Positions 53,654 to 64,000 of a stretch of DNA of 64,000 nucleotides are shown piece by piece. This DNA is from Perkinsus marinus ATCC 50983 (taxonomy: Eukaryota > Perkinsozoa > Perkinsida > Perkinsidae), in NCBI RefSeq assembly GCF_000006405.1, contig NW_003211161.1:1-64000 (forward strand). Reading direction: 5' to 3'. A program made the position numbers and the translations under genes. Position 1 is the stretch's first letter. Each line of letters opens with the position of its first letter. The notes beneath the pieces are model-generated. The model saw only the letters and a program-made list of their open reading frames with translations. It ran no database searches and was not told the origin of the DNA.

Positions 53654-54713
53654 GGTGGATCCCGCGCCGGTTTCGCCAAGAAACCCAACCCATCGCCTTA
53701 ACAAAATTGCGCGCGCTGGGGTGGGGGCCCCGGGCGCGCGCTAAAATCAAACCGGCTTTACCTGCGGCTAGAGTATATAGGCAATTTGAAAGCCTCTTTT
53801 CGCGACCTAGCCATTCAATTGCGTTGAGGTTTAAATAGCATACGTAGCAGCTCGACACAGGTTGAGCACGCACTAGTCTGCACAAATGTAACACAACAGT
53901 TTCGACAAGGAGCCGATTTAAAATGACCGCAAGTTCGAATCCCAGGCCTGACAATTTTAAATCTTTTATTCATGTCACAAACATCTAGCGGAGCGATGCA
54001 GTTCGGCAAGATTCACGCAATTGTGCTGTCTCTGAAAATCGTTTCCGCCCGATTCGTGCAGCTCAGTTGGTAGAGCGCCCGCCCATCATGCGAGAATGCG
54101 CAGGTTCGATTCCCACGGACCACGTTTTTCATGCAACTTCTTAAAACGTGTGTGTAATGTTGGATTGCTAACTTCAGTACGATCTTGTCTCCTACCGTTT
54201 GTATACAACGATTACCAACGTCGGATGATGTATATTTGTGTTGGACAATATTAGCTCGATATTTCGTCAAGAAAAACGTTGCGTTGTCAGAACACCGTGC
54301 GATGTTTCGAGAGGCATCCATTTCCACGATTGCTAATTTCTCGTGTGTATCCAAAACGTGTCGAACATTTTCTTGAGATAAGTATGTAACAAAATATAAT
54401 TAGTAAGTCTCGTTGGTAACCTATTATACCTGATATCACTTTTTCTCTAGCTCACCAAGCCTGTACACTTACTTGGCGGTTCGGACAGATTTTCTGGCCG
54501 AACCGCCCCAGCAGCAGTAATGCCTTTATTTGCTTTTCCTCTTCGTCCGTTTCTTTCATCATATGAGAAGTACTGCTCCATGGGCCTCTAAGATTGAAAT
54601 GTGCATCACAAGTTAATTGCTATCACGGCAGTGCCGCTTTGGCTTCGAAGAAGCACGCTCGTGGCTCTCATTTTTCACCTAGCGTCCTCATACCTTCTCG
54701 CACCGGACCCTTG
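53654..54713 (+). mobile_element. ~1.06-kb repeat, unit 5
   Basis: Full length. The tRNA-like part (about 54047-54124) has an altered 3' acceptor (CACGGACCACG followed by T5). The 3' hairpin is at 54475-54508. It ends at CACCGGACCC, and after a short TTGTTC the next element start (TTGGTGGACC) begins the leader of the large Helitron-like gene. Confidence 0.88.
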
Positions 54714-55511: not shown

Positions 55512-58500
55512 ATGATTCCTTCCGTGCATTCCATTGAAGTAGCTAATCCGAGGATATATCAAGAACCAGCGGAGCGTACGGATGCTGCGAGGGAATGGAA
55601 TGCTTTTCTGTTGCGTCATAGAGACCATATAAGGAGGAATTTAATGATAGGTAATTCTTATTGGGTATAGTGTTTCTTTAGTTTCGTTCGATTCATATTA
55701 GTTCAAAATTATTGGACTAATGGTGTTTACATAATTGTACTGCTATGAGTACGATGGTTTATGATTCTTTGAAATGTTGATTATATTTTAAAGATTCTTT
55801 TATAACTTAGCAAGTTGATTCTGTATTTTACTATTGAGTGGTCATTACTCATAACTTATTAGTATTAGTAGTTTGTATTTTAGGTGAGAGATACGTCTTG
55901 GATGAACATGAGAGTTTAGAGTATTTTCGTGGTACAAATCCCGATGGTCATTGCTTTTTCCATTCTGTCATTGCATCATGTATTCCTGAGAGAACACTAA
56001 ATGATGACAGAGATTACGGTATAGCAGTGCATCGTTGGGCGGCTGTTCAAATGGGTCGTCTAGTAGAAGAAGGTATTCTAGATTTTTCATTTTTAGCAGA
56101 CTATTTGGGGGTTCAAGGAGGAAATGTTGCTGATGCTATCGAAATAGCACAAAGAGATTTTGCAAGACCAACAATACAGTTTACTCTGGCACATCTTATT
56201 AATAGACCTATTGTCTATGTTAGTAGACAGTCATTGACAGATGATACTATGCTTCCGACTGTTGGTGTGTATGTGCCAGATGATCCATATGGCGCTTCTT
56301 GTGAGCCTGTCTTCGTTGGTCATGAGCATTATCAATCTGCATCATCTCTAGATGGGGGTTCCGGTCATTATATTGTTTTGAGGCGTAGAAGTGTAGCACA
56401 AACTGCGGCTTCGGATTCACTAGCTAGAAGTGATATAAATGTTGTGTCAAATATAGGTGAGGGTTTGATGGAAAGGAGTACTGTTTCGAAGCCTATTATA
56501 GGTAATATACGAAGTGCACTTTCTGTTTCATAGTTATATTTTTTTCTTTTGAACAAAATAACAGTTAATGAATGTGTATAGGAGTGAGATGATGAAGAAT
56601 AAATTTGATGGAACTGCTGTCATTGTTTTAGTTAATGTCTTAGCTACTGTTGCTAATTGAAAGATGCTTATAGATTTGTTTCAGGCGCTCGTCCAGTACG
56701 TGATACTATGAAACCTTCCAAGCTTGGGAGCAGTAAGAAACGTAGTAAAAAGATAGAACGTGAGTGCAATCGTTGCCTAAATTGTGGAGGATTTATGAAC
56801 GAAGATGGGCAGTGTAAAAAATGTGATTCTCGTAAAAGATGTGGTAAAAAATGTAGAACTGTTCAGCCGGCAACTGTTGAGAATCCTGTATCTGTGCAAT
56901 GTAGTAAGACACAGTATCCTGATAGTGATAGGAGTGAAAATGTCTCGCATGTGAAGTGTACTCCAAAGTTGTATAGTTTTTGTGCTAAGGACGTGTTTTT
57001 CAATGATGTAAATTTTACAGTTATAACTGATAATGATATAATAATGTCGGAAAAAATATCGCATTGTGATAATTGTTTACGATGGTCGACGAAAAAGTAT
57101 AAACTTTACTTTAAAAAAATGCGCGTATCTGAAATCATTTGTCGGAAATATTTATTGATTGATAGAAAAAACTTAAAATCTAAGGATAAAAAGGAATACT
57201 ATTTTTGTGATGAGTGTTATTGCTATATATCTGGTATGAGGTATAAGGCTAGTTCATGGGGTGTAGCGTGGCCAAGTTTTATCGCATTCATTCTTGTAAA
57301 GATAGGCTTCGTACAAGTCTGGTCATGGATCCCAGTAGATTTGAGAATATCGTGGTTACCCTCTCGTAAGTTTTTTCATGAAGCGTTAAGGAACGTTTCA
57401 ATATTGACACCCACTCCGTATTTTGAGGATAAAACATATAATCGTGCAAAACTCTTGGATGCGCTAGAGAAAATGGAGGGTGCAAATTTGAGTCGTTGTT
57501 TAGATGAAAGTTGTGTAGCTGATGTTAGATGTTTTTGTGGTTCTCAAGAATTTCTCGAAGACTGTAGTCTTTTTTCCTTGCAGTACGGGTTGGTGCATGA
57601 GTATTCTAACATGCGTAAATTGGGTGTGTTGCTACGGGGAGATCGTTGTAATCGTGATTATCTCGCAGCGGCTCGTTTCGATTGGCTATATTCTTGGCTT
57701 TTTCTTGAAAAATGGAGGATAGGTCCTTGTGTAGTTGTCGATTCGCAGTATGGGTTATGCTTGCTTGTTTGTAAAGAGCATAGAAACGGTAGTTTATTCA
57801 GGCATGTTCATTTGGCATACAATCCCATACAGAAAAATAAGCCCCTTTTAATACCAGATAGGTTGGGTGGACTAGTATTAGCACCACAGATAGTAAAACC
57901 CCTTGTTAAAAAATATAATGTAAACACTTATGAGGTGTTACGTATGACTGGATCTTATAACGGTCTCAGCTCTTGTATGTTACAAACTCGACGTAGGTGG
58001 GATATTACATCAAATGCATTGGCAGATTCTGAGAGGTTGCAATTTCATTGTCGAAATGATATCCGCAATCGTGTAGAGGAATTTTTCAAGAGTGGAGATA
58101 TATCGCGTGAAGTATACGAGTCGTTTGTGAATGATGTACCATTATCTATCTGCGAAAAGGAACAAATATCATTTTGTGAGAAGTCTGCAACTGTTTTTGG
58201 GATTGACAATCTATTAGATTGTCGTAAGGCTTTATATGAAGGAAAATGTAATAGGAGGTATTGTGTTACTCGAGTAGTAGAAGATGGTGATAATATTAGA
58301 CGGATAAGATATAATTATCCGTGGCCATTGAGGTTATTAGAGGTTGTTGCAGGGTCTTTCCCGTTATCTTTCAATATAGTTAATAAAATTCGGGCGAATT
58401 CTTGTGAAACTTGTTCCGGTTTTTCTCATGTATGGTTGTTGTCCTTATTATTATCTACGGTTTCACATTTGTGGGGATTAGTGGTAGATCGTGCGATTTC

Positions 58501-61500
58501 TGATGAAAATGAGAATTGGGAGGGCCATTTACTAAGGTTCATTACAGTGAAAGTTTTGAAATTGAAAATTACTCCTTTTGGAAAGGACAATCCTTACAAA
58601 AGTGTTCTAGGAATTGATCAGTTAGAGGCTAAAATACGAAGTTCATTTAATGTTGGCAGTAGTGCTGAATGTAATGTAATATCATATTTAGGGTCTTTCC
58701 CAGATGTTTCTCAAAGATCTATAAGTAGTTTAGATGTACCTCAATTAGAAAGTTTATATGATGTAAATATATCAAGCAAAATATTGCTTATTAATCGCAC
58801 TGATGCTAGTAGGATAAGTAAATGTGAAATAGCAAATGTGTTACGAATTGGGAGTAAATTGTATAGTTTACGGTACATAGGGTTTTCTCAACGAAGTAGT
58901 AAATTTTCTAATGATGGTTTTCATGCCGAAAGTTGTACTATACCCCTGTGTGCGGTTGACAGAATTATTTACTACTCTTCTAATAGTGCTTTGTCGAAAA
59001 TAGTCGAGGAAATCCCTGTTAGCATTAAGCAACATTGGACTGTATTATGCTATGAACTTGTCCAGAAACAGACTCTTGAGGAGTATAGAATTGGTTATAT
59101 GCAGTCACTTGATAGTACAGCAATATTTTATTGTGTTAAGCACAGACTGCCTCTCGTTAGGGACATTCGGGAAAGTACCTGTTCTTGTTGTATATTATTA
59201 GCGGAAGGAAATAAATGCGATCGAAAGAGTCATGTTAGATGTATATCAAGTTCGTGCCATATATGTTTATGCAAAGTGCATTATTTATATTATCAAGATA
59301 TCACTCAAGAAGTGCCCAATATAATATCACGTATTCCTGTTACTCCTCATTCAATTTCTTCGTCTGGTAGGAATTTTGATGGAACATGCGAGTCAGATTC
59401 CGATGTATGTACCGTGTCGGATGAGTCTATAATTGAAACGTCTTCTTTTTCTAGTGAGTCAGTTTTAGTCAACGATCGTGATAGTGATTCGGGTTGTAGT
59501 GAGTCTTCTATATATCAACTGAGTGATGTTGATCCTCTGGATTTAGTTGAACTGGATCGTATTGAAAACACTGATACATTTGTGAATGAAATTGGTATTG
59601 TAGATCCTGAGGCAGTAAAGTACTCTATACCTCGCCATGCTGTTTTTAATATCGATTCGCAGATTCTTAAGAGAAATACGACTAGGATAAGTGGGAGTCT
59701 CGCGCAAAGGCGGTTTCTCTATTCATTCGTGTGTACAGATCGTGGCCGATCTTTGTCGTTAATTAATTTCGAAGCTGATGTCTTTCCATCTATATTTTAT
59801 ATTCAAGGCATAGACGGTCTTTTTCCGGGTTCTATTCCGCAATTTCTCTACGATAGTGAGATGAGTAATCGATATTTCGGATTCGATGGGATAGACACGA
59901 TGTTAAGAACTAGAATAAAAGATGGCGCATCCTTGACGGGATGTGATCCGAGATATATTGGACACGCATTCGATGCGATAGTTAATTTAGAGTTACGTGG
60001 GTCTGATACTCGTTTAGTACAAAGTCGTGGGTTTGAACATTTAATTGGGTCGTATGGAAATAAAGTGAGTGAGAGTCGTATGAGCTTCGACAGTGTGGAT
60101 TCGAGACGTAGAATTTGTGAGGTGGCGTCATTTACTAAAAAGTCTCCCGAGTTTTTTTACACACATACGGTAAGTATGAGACATCATCCTGGTGTTCGTT
60201 TAATATTTAAAGAGGCTGAACTATTAGGATATATTGATAGTGATAATGATTTATCGAGAATGAGGGATACTTCAATTGCTGTTCAACTCACTAGATCTGC
60301 TGAGAGAGCGGTCAGATATATTTGGGAGTATATTTTGAGAAGTCCAGAAAAACCGTTGGGCGAAGTAGAATCTTTGTGGTATAGATCCGAATGGCAATCG
60401 GATGGTAATCATGCTGGGAATTTACCACATACACATGGTTTGATTAAATTAAAAGAGGGGACTCAAAATCTTAATGATTGTTTAGAGCGGATAATATGTT
60501 CGAGTTCACGTTTGTTTAATAATAAGGAGTACTTGATGGAGATAGGGTTAATAGAATCGGAGTCCGACTACGAAGAGTTACGTGACCGGGCTAGTCGGGT
60601 TCAAAAACATGATTGTCGTGCAGCTAATTATCGATGTCACAGAATAGTTGGTGAGAATGAGTCGTCTCGTTGTAGGACACCACATTATCCACCATCGGAG
60701 GAATATCGTTTCGTTGATTATACTCCTGAACACAGTGAATCTGCTTTAGAGTTGCTTATAAAGATAGGTCTGGCTCGTAGAAACTTGGAGGGTGATATTA
60801 TTTGGAATGATCAGTTGATAGGGGGAAAATATTTTTATCCTGCTGATAAGTACGAGCATTTCATACCGACTAATAATCATCTATGGGCGTTACATCGAAG
60901 TCAATGTAATCTTTTGTATTGCGATCAATATAGAAGAAGTAGATATATTGCGAAGTATATAGCTGCTTCAGAATCTAAAGCTGCAGTTTTTCTCAAAGTA
61001 GATAAATCGGATAATGTGATTGGGCCTCGAGGGGAAGGATTGCAATCGGTGCGTGCAGAAATTGGTCCTCGTGAAGGGTCTAAATATAGAAATGCTGGTT
61101 CATATAAGAAAGGTCGTGAAACGGTAGGTCGTTTGAGTCCTTTTACAGAGATAGTTTATCACGTTCTGAAGCTGAAAACCTTATGTACTAATGTAGAATT
61201 CATTAAACTTCCAAGTGTTCCGTTTGAAAGCAGAGGTGGTATTTATTTAGGAAAATCCCCAATTGTAGTTTCGCAGCAATCATCTGATTTATCACATGGA
61301 AATCAACCTGAATGTATCAGATTGAGGTTTAATAAGGGGTTGCCATCGTGGAGACTGTTTACCGTGTCCCAAAGTATACTTTATAACGATCGTGCTACTT
61401 CTTCTGTGAGTGTAGATAAGTATACAGTTTTTTCTTTGAGACCTCCTGAATTAATGATAATTTCGTCACCAAATGATTATTTCCGATGGTTTGTACGTTC

Positions 61501-64000
61501 GCCTACCAAAGTTTCACAGTCAAAGAATTTTGATAATTCACTTAGTAACCCGTTGGAGTTTATGATTCAAGTGAATTTATCAGAGTCATATTTTGTAGAT
61601 ATGTTAGACCATGTCGTGTTCATTCGTCGAAATTGTATCAAAGCATGTGTGGAATTTTTGGAGAATATTACGATGGATATCATGCATTCAATCCAGGAAT
61701 TTATCATCGCTCGTCAACTTTTACATGATATATTTTTACCTTTGAGTAGTATTATTGCTGGTGTTTCATCGTCGGCTTCATCGGAATTTTATCATAGATA
61801 TGTTAAGGAAATAAGTGAACCAGTTTTGGTTAACAGTAATATATCGCCAATTAATCAATGTAAATTTCTTATTCATTTAGCATTAACATTAGGGCATTTC
61901 GAAACAGAATTAGACTTATTCAAAGGTCCCTCAATATTAGATGTGTTCGTGCGGTCTAAAATCATAGATAATGATTTCTCTACTGATTTTGATGAAGAGC
62001 ACATTTTTAGTGTATTACGAAAATATGTATTGACAGAACTTCTATATTATCCAGGTGGTGGAACCTTTACATTTGATTCGTATCTGGTTGCAGCTTACAC
62101 ATCCCTCCGAAATAGTTTGTTAGATGAGTCGTACGCATCTGATCTTCCTGGTGTTCTTTTGAGTGATATTTCGCAAAATGCTTCAACTGAATTGCGTAAA
62201 TTTATAGATGATACTAAATCATCTACCATACAAGCATGCTTGGCTGAGATCCATTTGATATCTCCCACTGAGAGGGAATTTAGTGAAGCCACTCGTTTTA
62301 ATCCTTTACAGTGGATACCTGTTGCTGATGAGTTTGGTGTATTAACTCAAACATCTGCAGTTGAACAAACTCTTGCACTTAACGATCTAATAACTTATAT
62401 CGATTCTTATGCTAATGTCACATCTGGTTTTAGTCGCTTTCCCGTGATCATCGGGAGTCCTGGAGTAGGAAAAACATCTCTACTAGTGAAGTTAGCTTTA
62501 TATTGCATTGGACGTGGTTTATTAACCGTCTTTACCAGTCTTACAGCGGAAACATCATTACGTTTTGGTGGAATTCATTGCCATGCACTCCTACCGATTC
62601 CGATTTCAAATCAATCGCGTTTTATAGATGTGGATCGAATGACTGAAAAGTGCATTTTTTCGTTGAGTCGTAATCCGAATAAAACAGCATATTTAAAATG
62701 TATTAATGTTATATGTATAGAGGAATTGGGCCTTGTGAGTGCAGAAATTATCTCATTATTAGACAGAGTATTACGGGTTATCAGAGGATCTACTTTACCT
62801 TTTGGGGGGGGTTGTGGTACTTGCTACTATGGATCCTTTCCAACTTCCTCCTGTGGAAGGGAGGCCTTTGTTGGTTTCACCTTTATTTCTCACTATGTTT
62901 CGAATGGTAAAATTATCTTCTTATGTACGGTCAGCTACGGATCCGCGATTACAACGTATAAATGAAATTGGACGATTGCCTAATCTAGTAGAAAATCCAT
63001 CGTTGATTGATGAATATTGTTCTATCGTAAGGGAGGGATGTAGGTTTGAATCTGATATTCACAATGTTCCACGTACCGTTTTGAGAGTAGTAGGAAAGAG
63101 AGTTGCGGAACAGGAAGCCATATTGACTCGGGAGAATGAGATGTTGAGAATTTTACCAGCGGATGAGGTTTATATATCTTTTTCAGTCGATAAGGAAACT
63201 ATTTCGGAAGGTCTTAATTGGAAGAATGCGACAAATGAAACAATATATGGATTGAATAGAAAATGTCTTTCTCCTAGTAGATTAGTTTTGTATAGGTATT
63301 GTATAATGCGTTTGACAGAAAATGATACTTCGAATAGAACATATTCTCAGGGTCAGTTGTGTGTGATCGAGTCTGTTCCATCGTGTGATCGTGGAAGTGT
63401 AGGAATACTTTTATCACCGCCTGGAAATCGTTCTCTCCCGGATGATAATGACTATAAAGCTGCGGGATGGCTACCTATATCTCTATCGTTTCCTAGCACG
63501 TCTAGAGACGTATATATTAGAAAAGGTTTATTAGGTCGCCGATTACAGTATCCACTAAACCGTTTGTGGCTATAACGGTGCATCGATCGATGGGATGTAC
63601 ACTTCCTTCTGTTTGTGCTAAATTAAGTTTAATTGACTCAAAAGATCATTTGTGGTTACGCTCGCAGTTATACACTCTCTTTTCTAGAGTAGAAAGGCTG
63701 GAAAATATCATACTCATTGGGAATATTACTTCCATTCTCGCAGTCATAAGGCATTTACTTGTTAAACCACAACAGTTTGATCAATATGTACATGAAGTTT
63801 TGAAAAGCTTTGAATCGATCCAGCCACCAACGTATTTTTCGTCGTTAAACCAGAATGTATCAAATGTGAATTTAATAACTAGTTGGCCTTTTCATACGTC
63901 TACTTTACCCCTACCAGATACATCTAATATAGGTGGGTGTGTATATTTGTTGTGCAGTATGCGTAATAGTAATATATGTTATATTGGTCAAACTACGTCT
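55512..64000 (+). CDS. OTU protease - Rep nuclease - Pif1 helicase - GIY-YIG polyprotein of a Helitron-like element (partial, frameshifted)
   Basis: Exons 55512-55650, 55884-56501 and 56685 onward join in frame through GT-AG introns. Domains in order: OTU cysteine protease (GTNPDGHCFFHSV with catalytic Cys; GGSGHYIVLRR with His); Cys fingers CLNCGGFMNEDGQCKKC (56782-56832) and later CDNC, CDEC and CHIC pairs; the Rep nuclease with metal-binding HTH at 60428-60436 and the two-Tyr motif YIAKY at 60944-60958; the Pif1 helicase with Walker A GSPGVGKTS at 62453-62479 and Walker B CIEELG (about 62716-62733). A run of eight G (62814-62821) is followed by a frame change; motif III (DPFQLPP) continues in another frame. 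A second change near 63555-63570 precedes ITVHRSMGCTL. The chain then reaches a GIY-YIG start: VY at 63941-63946 and YIG at 63980-63988, 11 residues apart. Rolling-circle transposase. Confidence 0.88.
62814..62821 (+). other. G8 run at the helicase frameshift
   Basis: The frame carrying Walker A and B ends shortly after this eight-G homopolymer, and motif III of the helicase lies in another frame that starts here. It could be an indel, an assembly error, or less likely a slippery site. Confidence 0.8.

What the first reader, a model, noticed from the sequence alone, without database searches (positions are those of the whole stretch)
55512..64000. One spliced gene fuses OTU, Rep, Pif1 and GIY-YIG domains in a Helitron-like element
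Both introns between the OTU part and the Rep/helicase part have GT-AG ends and keep the reading frame (ATA-G|GT; G|GC), so the OTU protease is the N terminus of the transposase. The downstream frame ends in a GIY-YIG start with canonical 11-residue spacing. Known Helitron variants can carry OTU or AP-type endonuclease domains; I do not recall this four-part order with a C-terminal GIY-YIG as standard. It would give a rolling-circle element a second, independent nicking nuclease.
Basis: partly seen in the sequence, partly recalled or inferred. Interest (0 to 1): 0.9.

Follow-up and report, generated by a model that had tools for sequence, protein, structure and literature searches.

The report
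Helitron with fused SLX1-type GIY-YIG nuclease
A rolling-circle jumping gene in a perkinsid-like protist carries, fused to the end of its copying protein, a nuclease domain that resembles a DNA-junction cutter of host cells, and the same fusion occurs in related elements from other genomes.

Summary

Corrections: the window copy has two frame breaks, near 62.8 and 63.55 kb. OTU is weaker: Pfam below cut-off, failed model, frame-keeping uninformative (21 of 66 GT/AG pairs). In this genome a search with it finds only itself. But P0015 has OTU, Rep, Pif1, GIY-YIG in that order.

Host: perkinsid-like. Element ends not found. Eight searches of the held papers showed no GIY-YIG Helitron. New variant of a known kind.

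The parts
55512..55650 (+). candidate exon 1 (starts with ATG; no homology support)
   Evidence: GT at 55651; in-frame join; no relative of it was seen
55651..55883 (+). candidate intron 1 (233 bp, GTAATT...TTTTAG)
   Evidence: frame-keeping 25 of 66 pairs
55884..56501 (+). OTU-like exon 2: DGHC block at 55943-55954, GHY (candidate catalytic His) at 56363-56371
   Evidence: Peptidase_C65 E 0.082, below cut-off; 4 of 4 PDB rows OTU enzymes, best E 0.037; reversed control 0 of 5 rows OTU; single-sequence model pLDDT 37, inconclusive
56502..56684 (+). candidate intron 2 (183 bp, GTAATA...TTTCAG)
   Evidence: frame-keeping 21 of 66 pairs
56685..62800 (+). Cys-rich N part, Rep and first half of the Pif1 helicase (open frame 56657-62965, 2102 aa; it leaves the helicase reading near 62.8 kb)
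60416..60436 (+). Rep HUH motif GNLPHTH
60944..60958 (+). two Rep tyrosines, YIAKY
62453..62476 (+). Pif1 Walker A, GSPGVGKT
62800..63550 (+). middle of the Pif1 helicase in another frame (open frame 62763-63575); frame breaks near 62.8 and 63.55 kb
   Evidence: read in one frame in P0030
63550..64000 (+). last helicase motifs, linker and start of the GIY-YIG domain (open frame from 63521; stop codon ends at C118:64264, outside the window). GIY-YIG Pfam match C118:63935-64162
   Evidence: model pLDDT about 92 in the core, SLX1 fold

Best explanation
It is a Helitron-like (rolling-circle) element of a perkinsid-like alveolate. Its transposase is one long protein: a Cys-rich N part, an HUH Rep nickase with two tyrosines, a Pif1 helicase and a C-terminal GIY-YIG nuclease domain with the SLX1 fold. 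An OTU-type deubiquitinase-like domain is encoded just upstream and probably joined by splicing. Most likely working: Rep nicks and covalently holds the element's 5' end, Pif1 unwinds the strand, and the SLX1-type domain nicks a branched DNA made on the way (a flap, or the junction at the element end or insertion site), so the single strand can be released or fixed in the target. The OTU part would protect the long protein or act on host ubiquitin. Shown: domain order, fusion, residues, predicted fold, low dN/dS between two relatives. Inferred: every biochemical step, the splice to OTU, and the substrate.
Against: The window copy has two frame breaks. Its OTU is below Pfam cut-off, its model failed, a profile comparison with six OTU-bearing relatives matched only 12 columns (probability 1.1%), and no other copy here was found to have it. 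In P0005-P0009, the best-supported OTU carriers, the GIY-YIG residues are decayed, as in P0031, and P0035 showed no GIY-YIG, so the nuclease is dispensable in some lines. Element ends, a clean empty site and activity were not shown.
Confidence: 0.8

Rival explanations
1. The GIY-YIG domain is fused, but it works as a target-site nuclease, cutting the duplex target rather than resolving branches, in the place of the AP endonuclease of Helentrons.
For: Position is the same as the C-terminal AP endonuclease of Helentrons (PMC4067079, passages); no AP endonuclease family appeared at E <= 0.1 in the Pfam scans of P0030 and relatives.
Against: The fold is nearest to SLX1, a branch-specific nuclease, and farther from the homing nuclease I-TevI.
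Confidence: 0.3
2. OTU is a separate gene next to the transposase gene, not its N terminus; the proposed intron 2 is a chance GT-AG pair.
For: 21 of 66 GT/AG pairs keep the frame; P0030 holds no OTU; an in-frame ATG lies at 56708; published Helentrons carry OTU as an extra ORF (PMC4067079, passages).
Against: P0015 and P0005-P0009 have OTU in the same protein as Rep and Pif1, although those are database predictions whose exons I could not see.
Confidence: 0.35
3. The GIY-YIG stretch belongs to a neighbouring retroelement (Penelope-like) and the join is an accident.
For: GIY-YIG in eukaryotic transposable elements is described as part of Penelope-like elements (PMC5718144, passage).
Against: The same order stands in one frame in six other loci here and in proteins of other sources; part of the linker before GIY-YIG is conserved in six copies.
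Confidence: 0.02
4. The GIY-YIG domain is a decayed, structural leftover without activity.
For: Residues are lost in P0005-P0009 and P0031.
Against: All six catalytic positions are kept in the other 24 of 30 rows; dN/dS 0.068 (few changes).
Confidence: 0.08

Closest known systems
Helentron (Helitron-like elements with C-terminal AP endonuclease, often OTU)
   Same: RepHel with an extra nuclease at the C terminus, and OTU (PMC4067079, PMC6431247, PMC9741609; passages)
   Different: GIY-YIG of SLX1 fold in place of the AP endonuclease; Rep motif G-N-L-P-H-x-H, neither the G-S-P of Helentrons nor the G-L-P of Helitrons
proto-Helentron of Phytophthora infestans
   Same: RepHel without AP endonuclease, about 14 kb element with extra ORFs, in a protist (PMC4067079, passages)
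   Different: RepHel of 1,783 aa with no endonuclease domain reported; its sequence could not be compared here
Helitron2 (Chlamydomonas)
   Same: Rolling-circle group apart from canonical Helitrons, with hairpins at the ends (PMC3627910, passages)
   Different: Single ORF without endonuclease domain (PMC4067079); its terminal hairpins and ATIRs were not identified here
SLX1 structure-specific endonuclease
   Different: Here the C-terminal domain of a transposase that ends soon after it; no RING part (SLX1's RING is recalled)
Penelope-like retroelements and Terminons
   Same: Eukaryotic mobile elements with GIY-YIG (PMC5718144); Terminons also carry separate GIY-YIG-like and Rep ORFs (PMC6431247, passages)
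   Different: Retroelements; the GIY-YIG is not fused to a RepHel protein
Mariner-type element PGv-1 (virus-associated)
   Same: DNA transposon with a GIY-YIG nuclease (PMC3627910, passage)
   Different: GIY-YIG is a separate 291-aa protein of a Mariner, not a RepHel fusion

Membership tests
Helitron superfamily (RepHel) | HUH Rep with two catalytic tyrosines | tested here: met
   GNLPHTH and YIAKY in P0030, GNLPHIH and YLAKY in C54. Helitron_like_N over its cut-off at four places of this lineage in the genome search, for two of them only with neighbours in the frame, but under it in the window protein and P0030
Helitron superfamily (RepHel) | Pif1-type helicase in the same protein | tested here: met
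   PIF1 40.9 bits in P0030, cut-off 25.9; PDB Pif1 matches at both ends of the helicase. In the broken window frame 25.7 bits
Helitron superfamily (RepHel) | defined ends and an insertion without target duplication | tested here: inconclusive
   Ends not found; contig C155 lacks 21 kb including the element, and homology resumes at C118:68472; not a clean empty site
canonical Helitron (Helitron1) | Rep signature RG-L-P-HxH | tested here: not met
   GNLPHTH here; the canonical Helitron in this genome (C267) has RGLPHLH; rule from PMC4067079 (passage)
Helentron | C-terminal AP endonuclease | tested here: not met
   GIY-YIG instead; no AP endonuclease family at E <= 0.1 in P0030 or the long copies scanned
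Helentron | Rep signature RG-S-P-HxH | tested here: not met
Helitron2 | asymmetric terminal inverted repeats with a hairpin at both ends | tested here: inconclusive
   One 18-bp-stem hairpin at C118:65377-65421; no convincing ATIR pair in the stretches compared
GIY-YIG nuclease superfamily | Y..Y-x-G, Arg and Glu residues, fold | tested here: met
SLX1 | SLX1-type GIY-YIG fold | tested here: met
SLX1 | C-terminal RING domain binding SLX4 (recalled) | tested here: not met
   The window's protein ends 40 residues after the conserved Glu; no RING family in the scan of P0030
OTU protease (window exon 2) | Asp/Cys block, His block and profile match | tested here: inconclusive
   Motifs present; Pfam below cut-off; model failed; PDB rows 4 of 4 OTU but E 0.037 or worse

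The most novel reading that the evidence does not exclude
An SLX1-type GIY-YIG nuclease marks a separate, ancient lineage of eukaryotic rolling-circle transposons, beside Helitron, Helentron and Helitron2. The nuclease is ancestral in the lineage and acts as a built-in resolvase of branched transposition intermediates, with OTU gained or lost several times.
Probability: 0.35. Interest if true: 0.75.

Novelty: new variant of a known kind. Interest (0 to 1): 0.6.

Why it matters
How Helitrons finish transposition (release of the strand, cutting of the target, repair of the junction) is poorly understood. A lineage whose transposase carries its own branch-type nuclease makes that step testable with a small, well-modelled domain. 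It also puts GIY-YIG, known in eukaryotic mobile elements mainly from Penelope-like retroelements and as separate ORFs in Terminons and a Mariner, inside a rolling-circle transposase, and gives a marker for classifying such elements.

Tried and rejected
Retroelement origin of GIY-YIG: rejected by one-frame fusions elsewhere. OTU in the other copies: protein search of the genome found only the window; a motif scan of the fetched stretches L011-L017 found none, but 5' stretches not fetched were not scanned. PF02338 gave 3 genome places, none at a copy. OTU model without relatives: pLDDT 37, not used further. OTU against six OTU-bearing relatives by profile: 12 columns only. Frame test: one search counted 30 of 66 with an off-by-one; one search gives 21 of 66 (intron 2) and 25 of 66 (intron 1). 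Viral contigs: no relatives of the OTU exon or of P0015 with the patterns used. Viral structure library: GIY-YIG matches in giant viruses, best E 2.1e-6, no fusion implied. Element ends: no shared repeat beyond 12 bp between the flanks compared and no inverted one beyond 10 bp; the hairpin arm was found nowhere else in the genome at up to 1 mismatch. Flanks of C54 and C191 gave no ends. Gene at C118:65881-66897: no Pfam match at E <= 1 and no PDB match at E <= 10.

Trees of Rep-helicase cores are long-branched. Complete GIY-YIG residues occur in the window, in the Perkinsus group, in P0029, in the group of P0032-P0037 and in that of P0012-P0019 with P0015; they are decayed in P0005-P0009 and P0031 and unjudged in P0020-P0028. 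One search put the window with P0029, C214 and the Perkinsus copies (support 100, long branches), with another model and more rows, left it unplaced. P0002 and P0004 were left out of both trees; 12 rows in all were dropped before the second as near-duplicates or fragments, or replaced by P0030. Relatives whose C terminus could not be judged: P0010, P0011, P0020-P0028 (11 of 25), P0004 and P0038. The C214 domain was not in the 30-row alignment because my script did not pick it up. In P0012-P0019 the place of the W after the Glu holds I or L, and G96 is N. The database's own labels list OTU only for P0006, P0007, P0009 and P0015; my scans put P0005 and P0008 just over the cut-off as well.

Not-in-print claim: searches (the last listed 25 of 51 papers). 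Repbase and subscription papers were not searchable, and the HELIANO paper was not among the papers listed. Papers seen: passages only of PMC3627910, PMC6431247, PMC4067079, PMC9741609, PMC5718144 and PMC12910113; the others as listings with abstract starts.
Full report
What is there. The window is the first 64 kb of contig C118 (226,312 bp) of a 54.46-Mb, 347-contig genome. The host is a perkinsid-like alveolate. The dinoflagellate/perkinsid spliced-leader sequence (recalled) has 34 exact matches and its backward control none, and the two named proteins among 5 hits of the C252 copy are from Perkinsus olseni. The species was not determined. From about 55.0 kb to C118:68.5 kb the DNA has 31-42% G+C and mostly positive GC skew, against 40-52% in the 5 kb to the left and 44-51% from 68.5 to 71.5 kb. 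The stretch 56657-64261 has 37% G+C against 44-48% in the five other copies measured, so this copy is compositionally odd in its genome.

Coding parts. An OTU-like exon (55884-56501) is followed by a 2102-aa frame with Rep motifs and the first half of a Pif1 helicase. The helicase continues in a second frame (62763-63575), and a third frame (63521 to a stop ending at C118:64264) holds the last helicase motifs and GIY-YIG. A 2519-aa database protein, P0030, holds Pif1 (40.9 bits) and GIY-YIG (36.4 bits) in one frame. It matches the three window frames at 99.0% over 2,051 aa (4 mismatches, one 16-residue gap), 99.6% over 252 aa and 100% over 235 aa. It is listed with '-' as source, the tool's sign for a protein that the window itself encodes, so it may be another record of the same locus. 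Whether the breaks are assembly errors or mutations is open.

Relatives elsewhere. A search with the C252 copy returned 5 proteins: 3 with GIY-YIG (P0001-P0003), P0005 with a decayed one, P0004 with none seen. A search with P0005 returned 25 including itself: 9 with all six catalytic positions (P0012-P0019, P0029), 5 with a decayed domain (P0005-P0009), and 11 whose C terminus is missing or unjudged. A search with the window Rep returned 9: 6 labelled GIY-YIG including P0030, P0031 decayed, P0035 and P0038 without one seen. In one alignment of 30 C-terminal rows, some near-duplicates, Y45, Y57, G59 and N72 are kept in 27 of 30, H71 in 25, R67 and E110 in 24, and P87 and W88 in 30. Hosts of the 'ena' proteins were not named. 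Trees of the Rep-helicase core show complete GIY-YIG in several deep groups (window, Perkinsus copies, P0029, P0032-P0037, P0012-P0019 with P0015) and the canonical Helitron of this genome (C267) far outside; deep forks are uncertain.

The OTU part. OTU is over the Pfam cut-off (23.3) at the N terminus of P0005-P0009 (24.3-37.6 bits) and P0015 (27.2), that is, in 6 of the 23 database proteins scanned, P0030 counted. In the window the OTU call is weaker: DGHC and GHY motifs, Peptidase_C65 at E 0.082, 4 of 4 PDB rows OTU enzymes at E 0.037 or worse, reversed control 0 of 5. The structure prediction failed, and a profile comparison with the relatives aligned only the DG.C block. The splice to the transposase is possible, but keeping the frame is met by 21 of 66 GT/AG pairs around intron 2 and 25 of 66 around intron 1. 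I hold the splice at about two in three, mainly because of P0015 and P0005-P0009.

Placement among known systems. Rep (HUH, two tyrosines) and Pif1 make it a Helitron-like element. By the published signature (PMC4067079, passage) Helitrons have RG-L-P-HxH and Helentrons RG-S-P-HxH. The window and many relatives have GN-L-P-HxH, and others GN-x-P, GN-Y-Q, GN-L-S or AN-L-Q. It has no AP endonuclease in the scans. So it is neither a canonical Helitron nor a Helentron by these tests; Helitron2 membership is open because the ends were not found. Known GIY-YIG cases in mobile elements of eukaryotes and their viruses, from passages seen: Penelope-like elements (PMC5718144), separate GIY-YIG-like ORFs next to Rep ORFs in rotifer Terminons (PMC6431247), and a separate GIY-YIG protein of a virus-associated Mariner (PMC3627910). 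Eight searches of the held papers showed no RepHel-GIY-YIG fusion, within the limits of that library.

Likely mechanism. Rep nicks and carries the 5' end and Pif1 unwinds (recalled, general for Helitrons). The SLX1-type domain would nick a branched intermediate at the element end or target; this is inferred from fold and residues only. The alternative, a target-site nuclease in the place of the AP domain of Helentrons, stays open. OTU may protect the transposase or its host partners from ubiquitin-dependent removal, as suggested for Helitron-borne deubiquitinases (PMC9741609, passages).

Boundaries. Contig C155 carries a homologous stretch that matches C118:46555-47192 and again from 68,472, so it lacks 21 kb including the repeat arrays and the element. 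This bounds the element on the right at 68,471 but is not a clean empty site. A hairpin with an 18-bp stem (C118:65377-65421) has no second copy in the genome at up to 1 mismatch per arm, and its role is unknown.

Noticed in passing
window 54500-54713 and C118:48036, 50343, 51350, 52412: A 214-bp unit repeated in the contig and on C78, C157, C229, C4 and C251 at 87-100% identity, one copy left of the element.
   Followed up: partly
L009:3881-4897 (C118:65881-66897): A second open frame (339 aa) downstream on the same strand, by eye followed by GT-AG introns, with no Pfam or PDB match; perhaps another gene of the element.
   Followed up: partly
C118:65377-65421: Hairpin with 18-bp stem and 9-nt loop, no second copy in the genome at up to 1 mismatch per arm.
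   Followed up: yes
C155:56800-58300 (L057): Homologous region lacking 21 kb of C118 that includes the element and repeat arrays, with a 438-bp stretch without match in C118:1-82000 instead.
   Followed up: partly
L001 (G000:C267:182516-186049): A canonical Helitron Rep (Helitron_like_N 211 bits, RGLPHLH) in the same genome.
   Followed up: no
P0005-P0009: Relatives with the clearest OTU have decayed GIY-YIG residues, possibly one nuclease function lost after OTU gain or by chance.
   Followed up: no
P0035: A related RepHel with a sub-threshold OTU match (17.9 bits, cut-off 23.3) near its C terminus instead of GIY-YIG.
   Followed up: no
G000: 34 places: Exact dinoflagellate/perkinsid spliced-leader sequences, several in pairs about 5-6 kb apart.
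   Followed up: no
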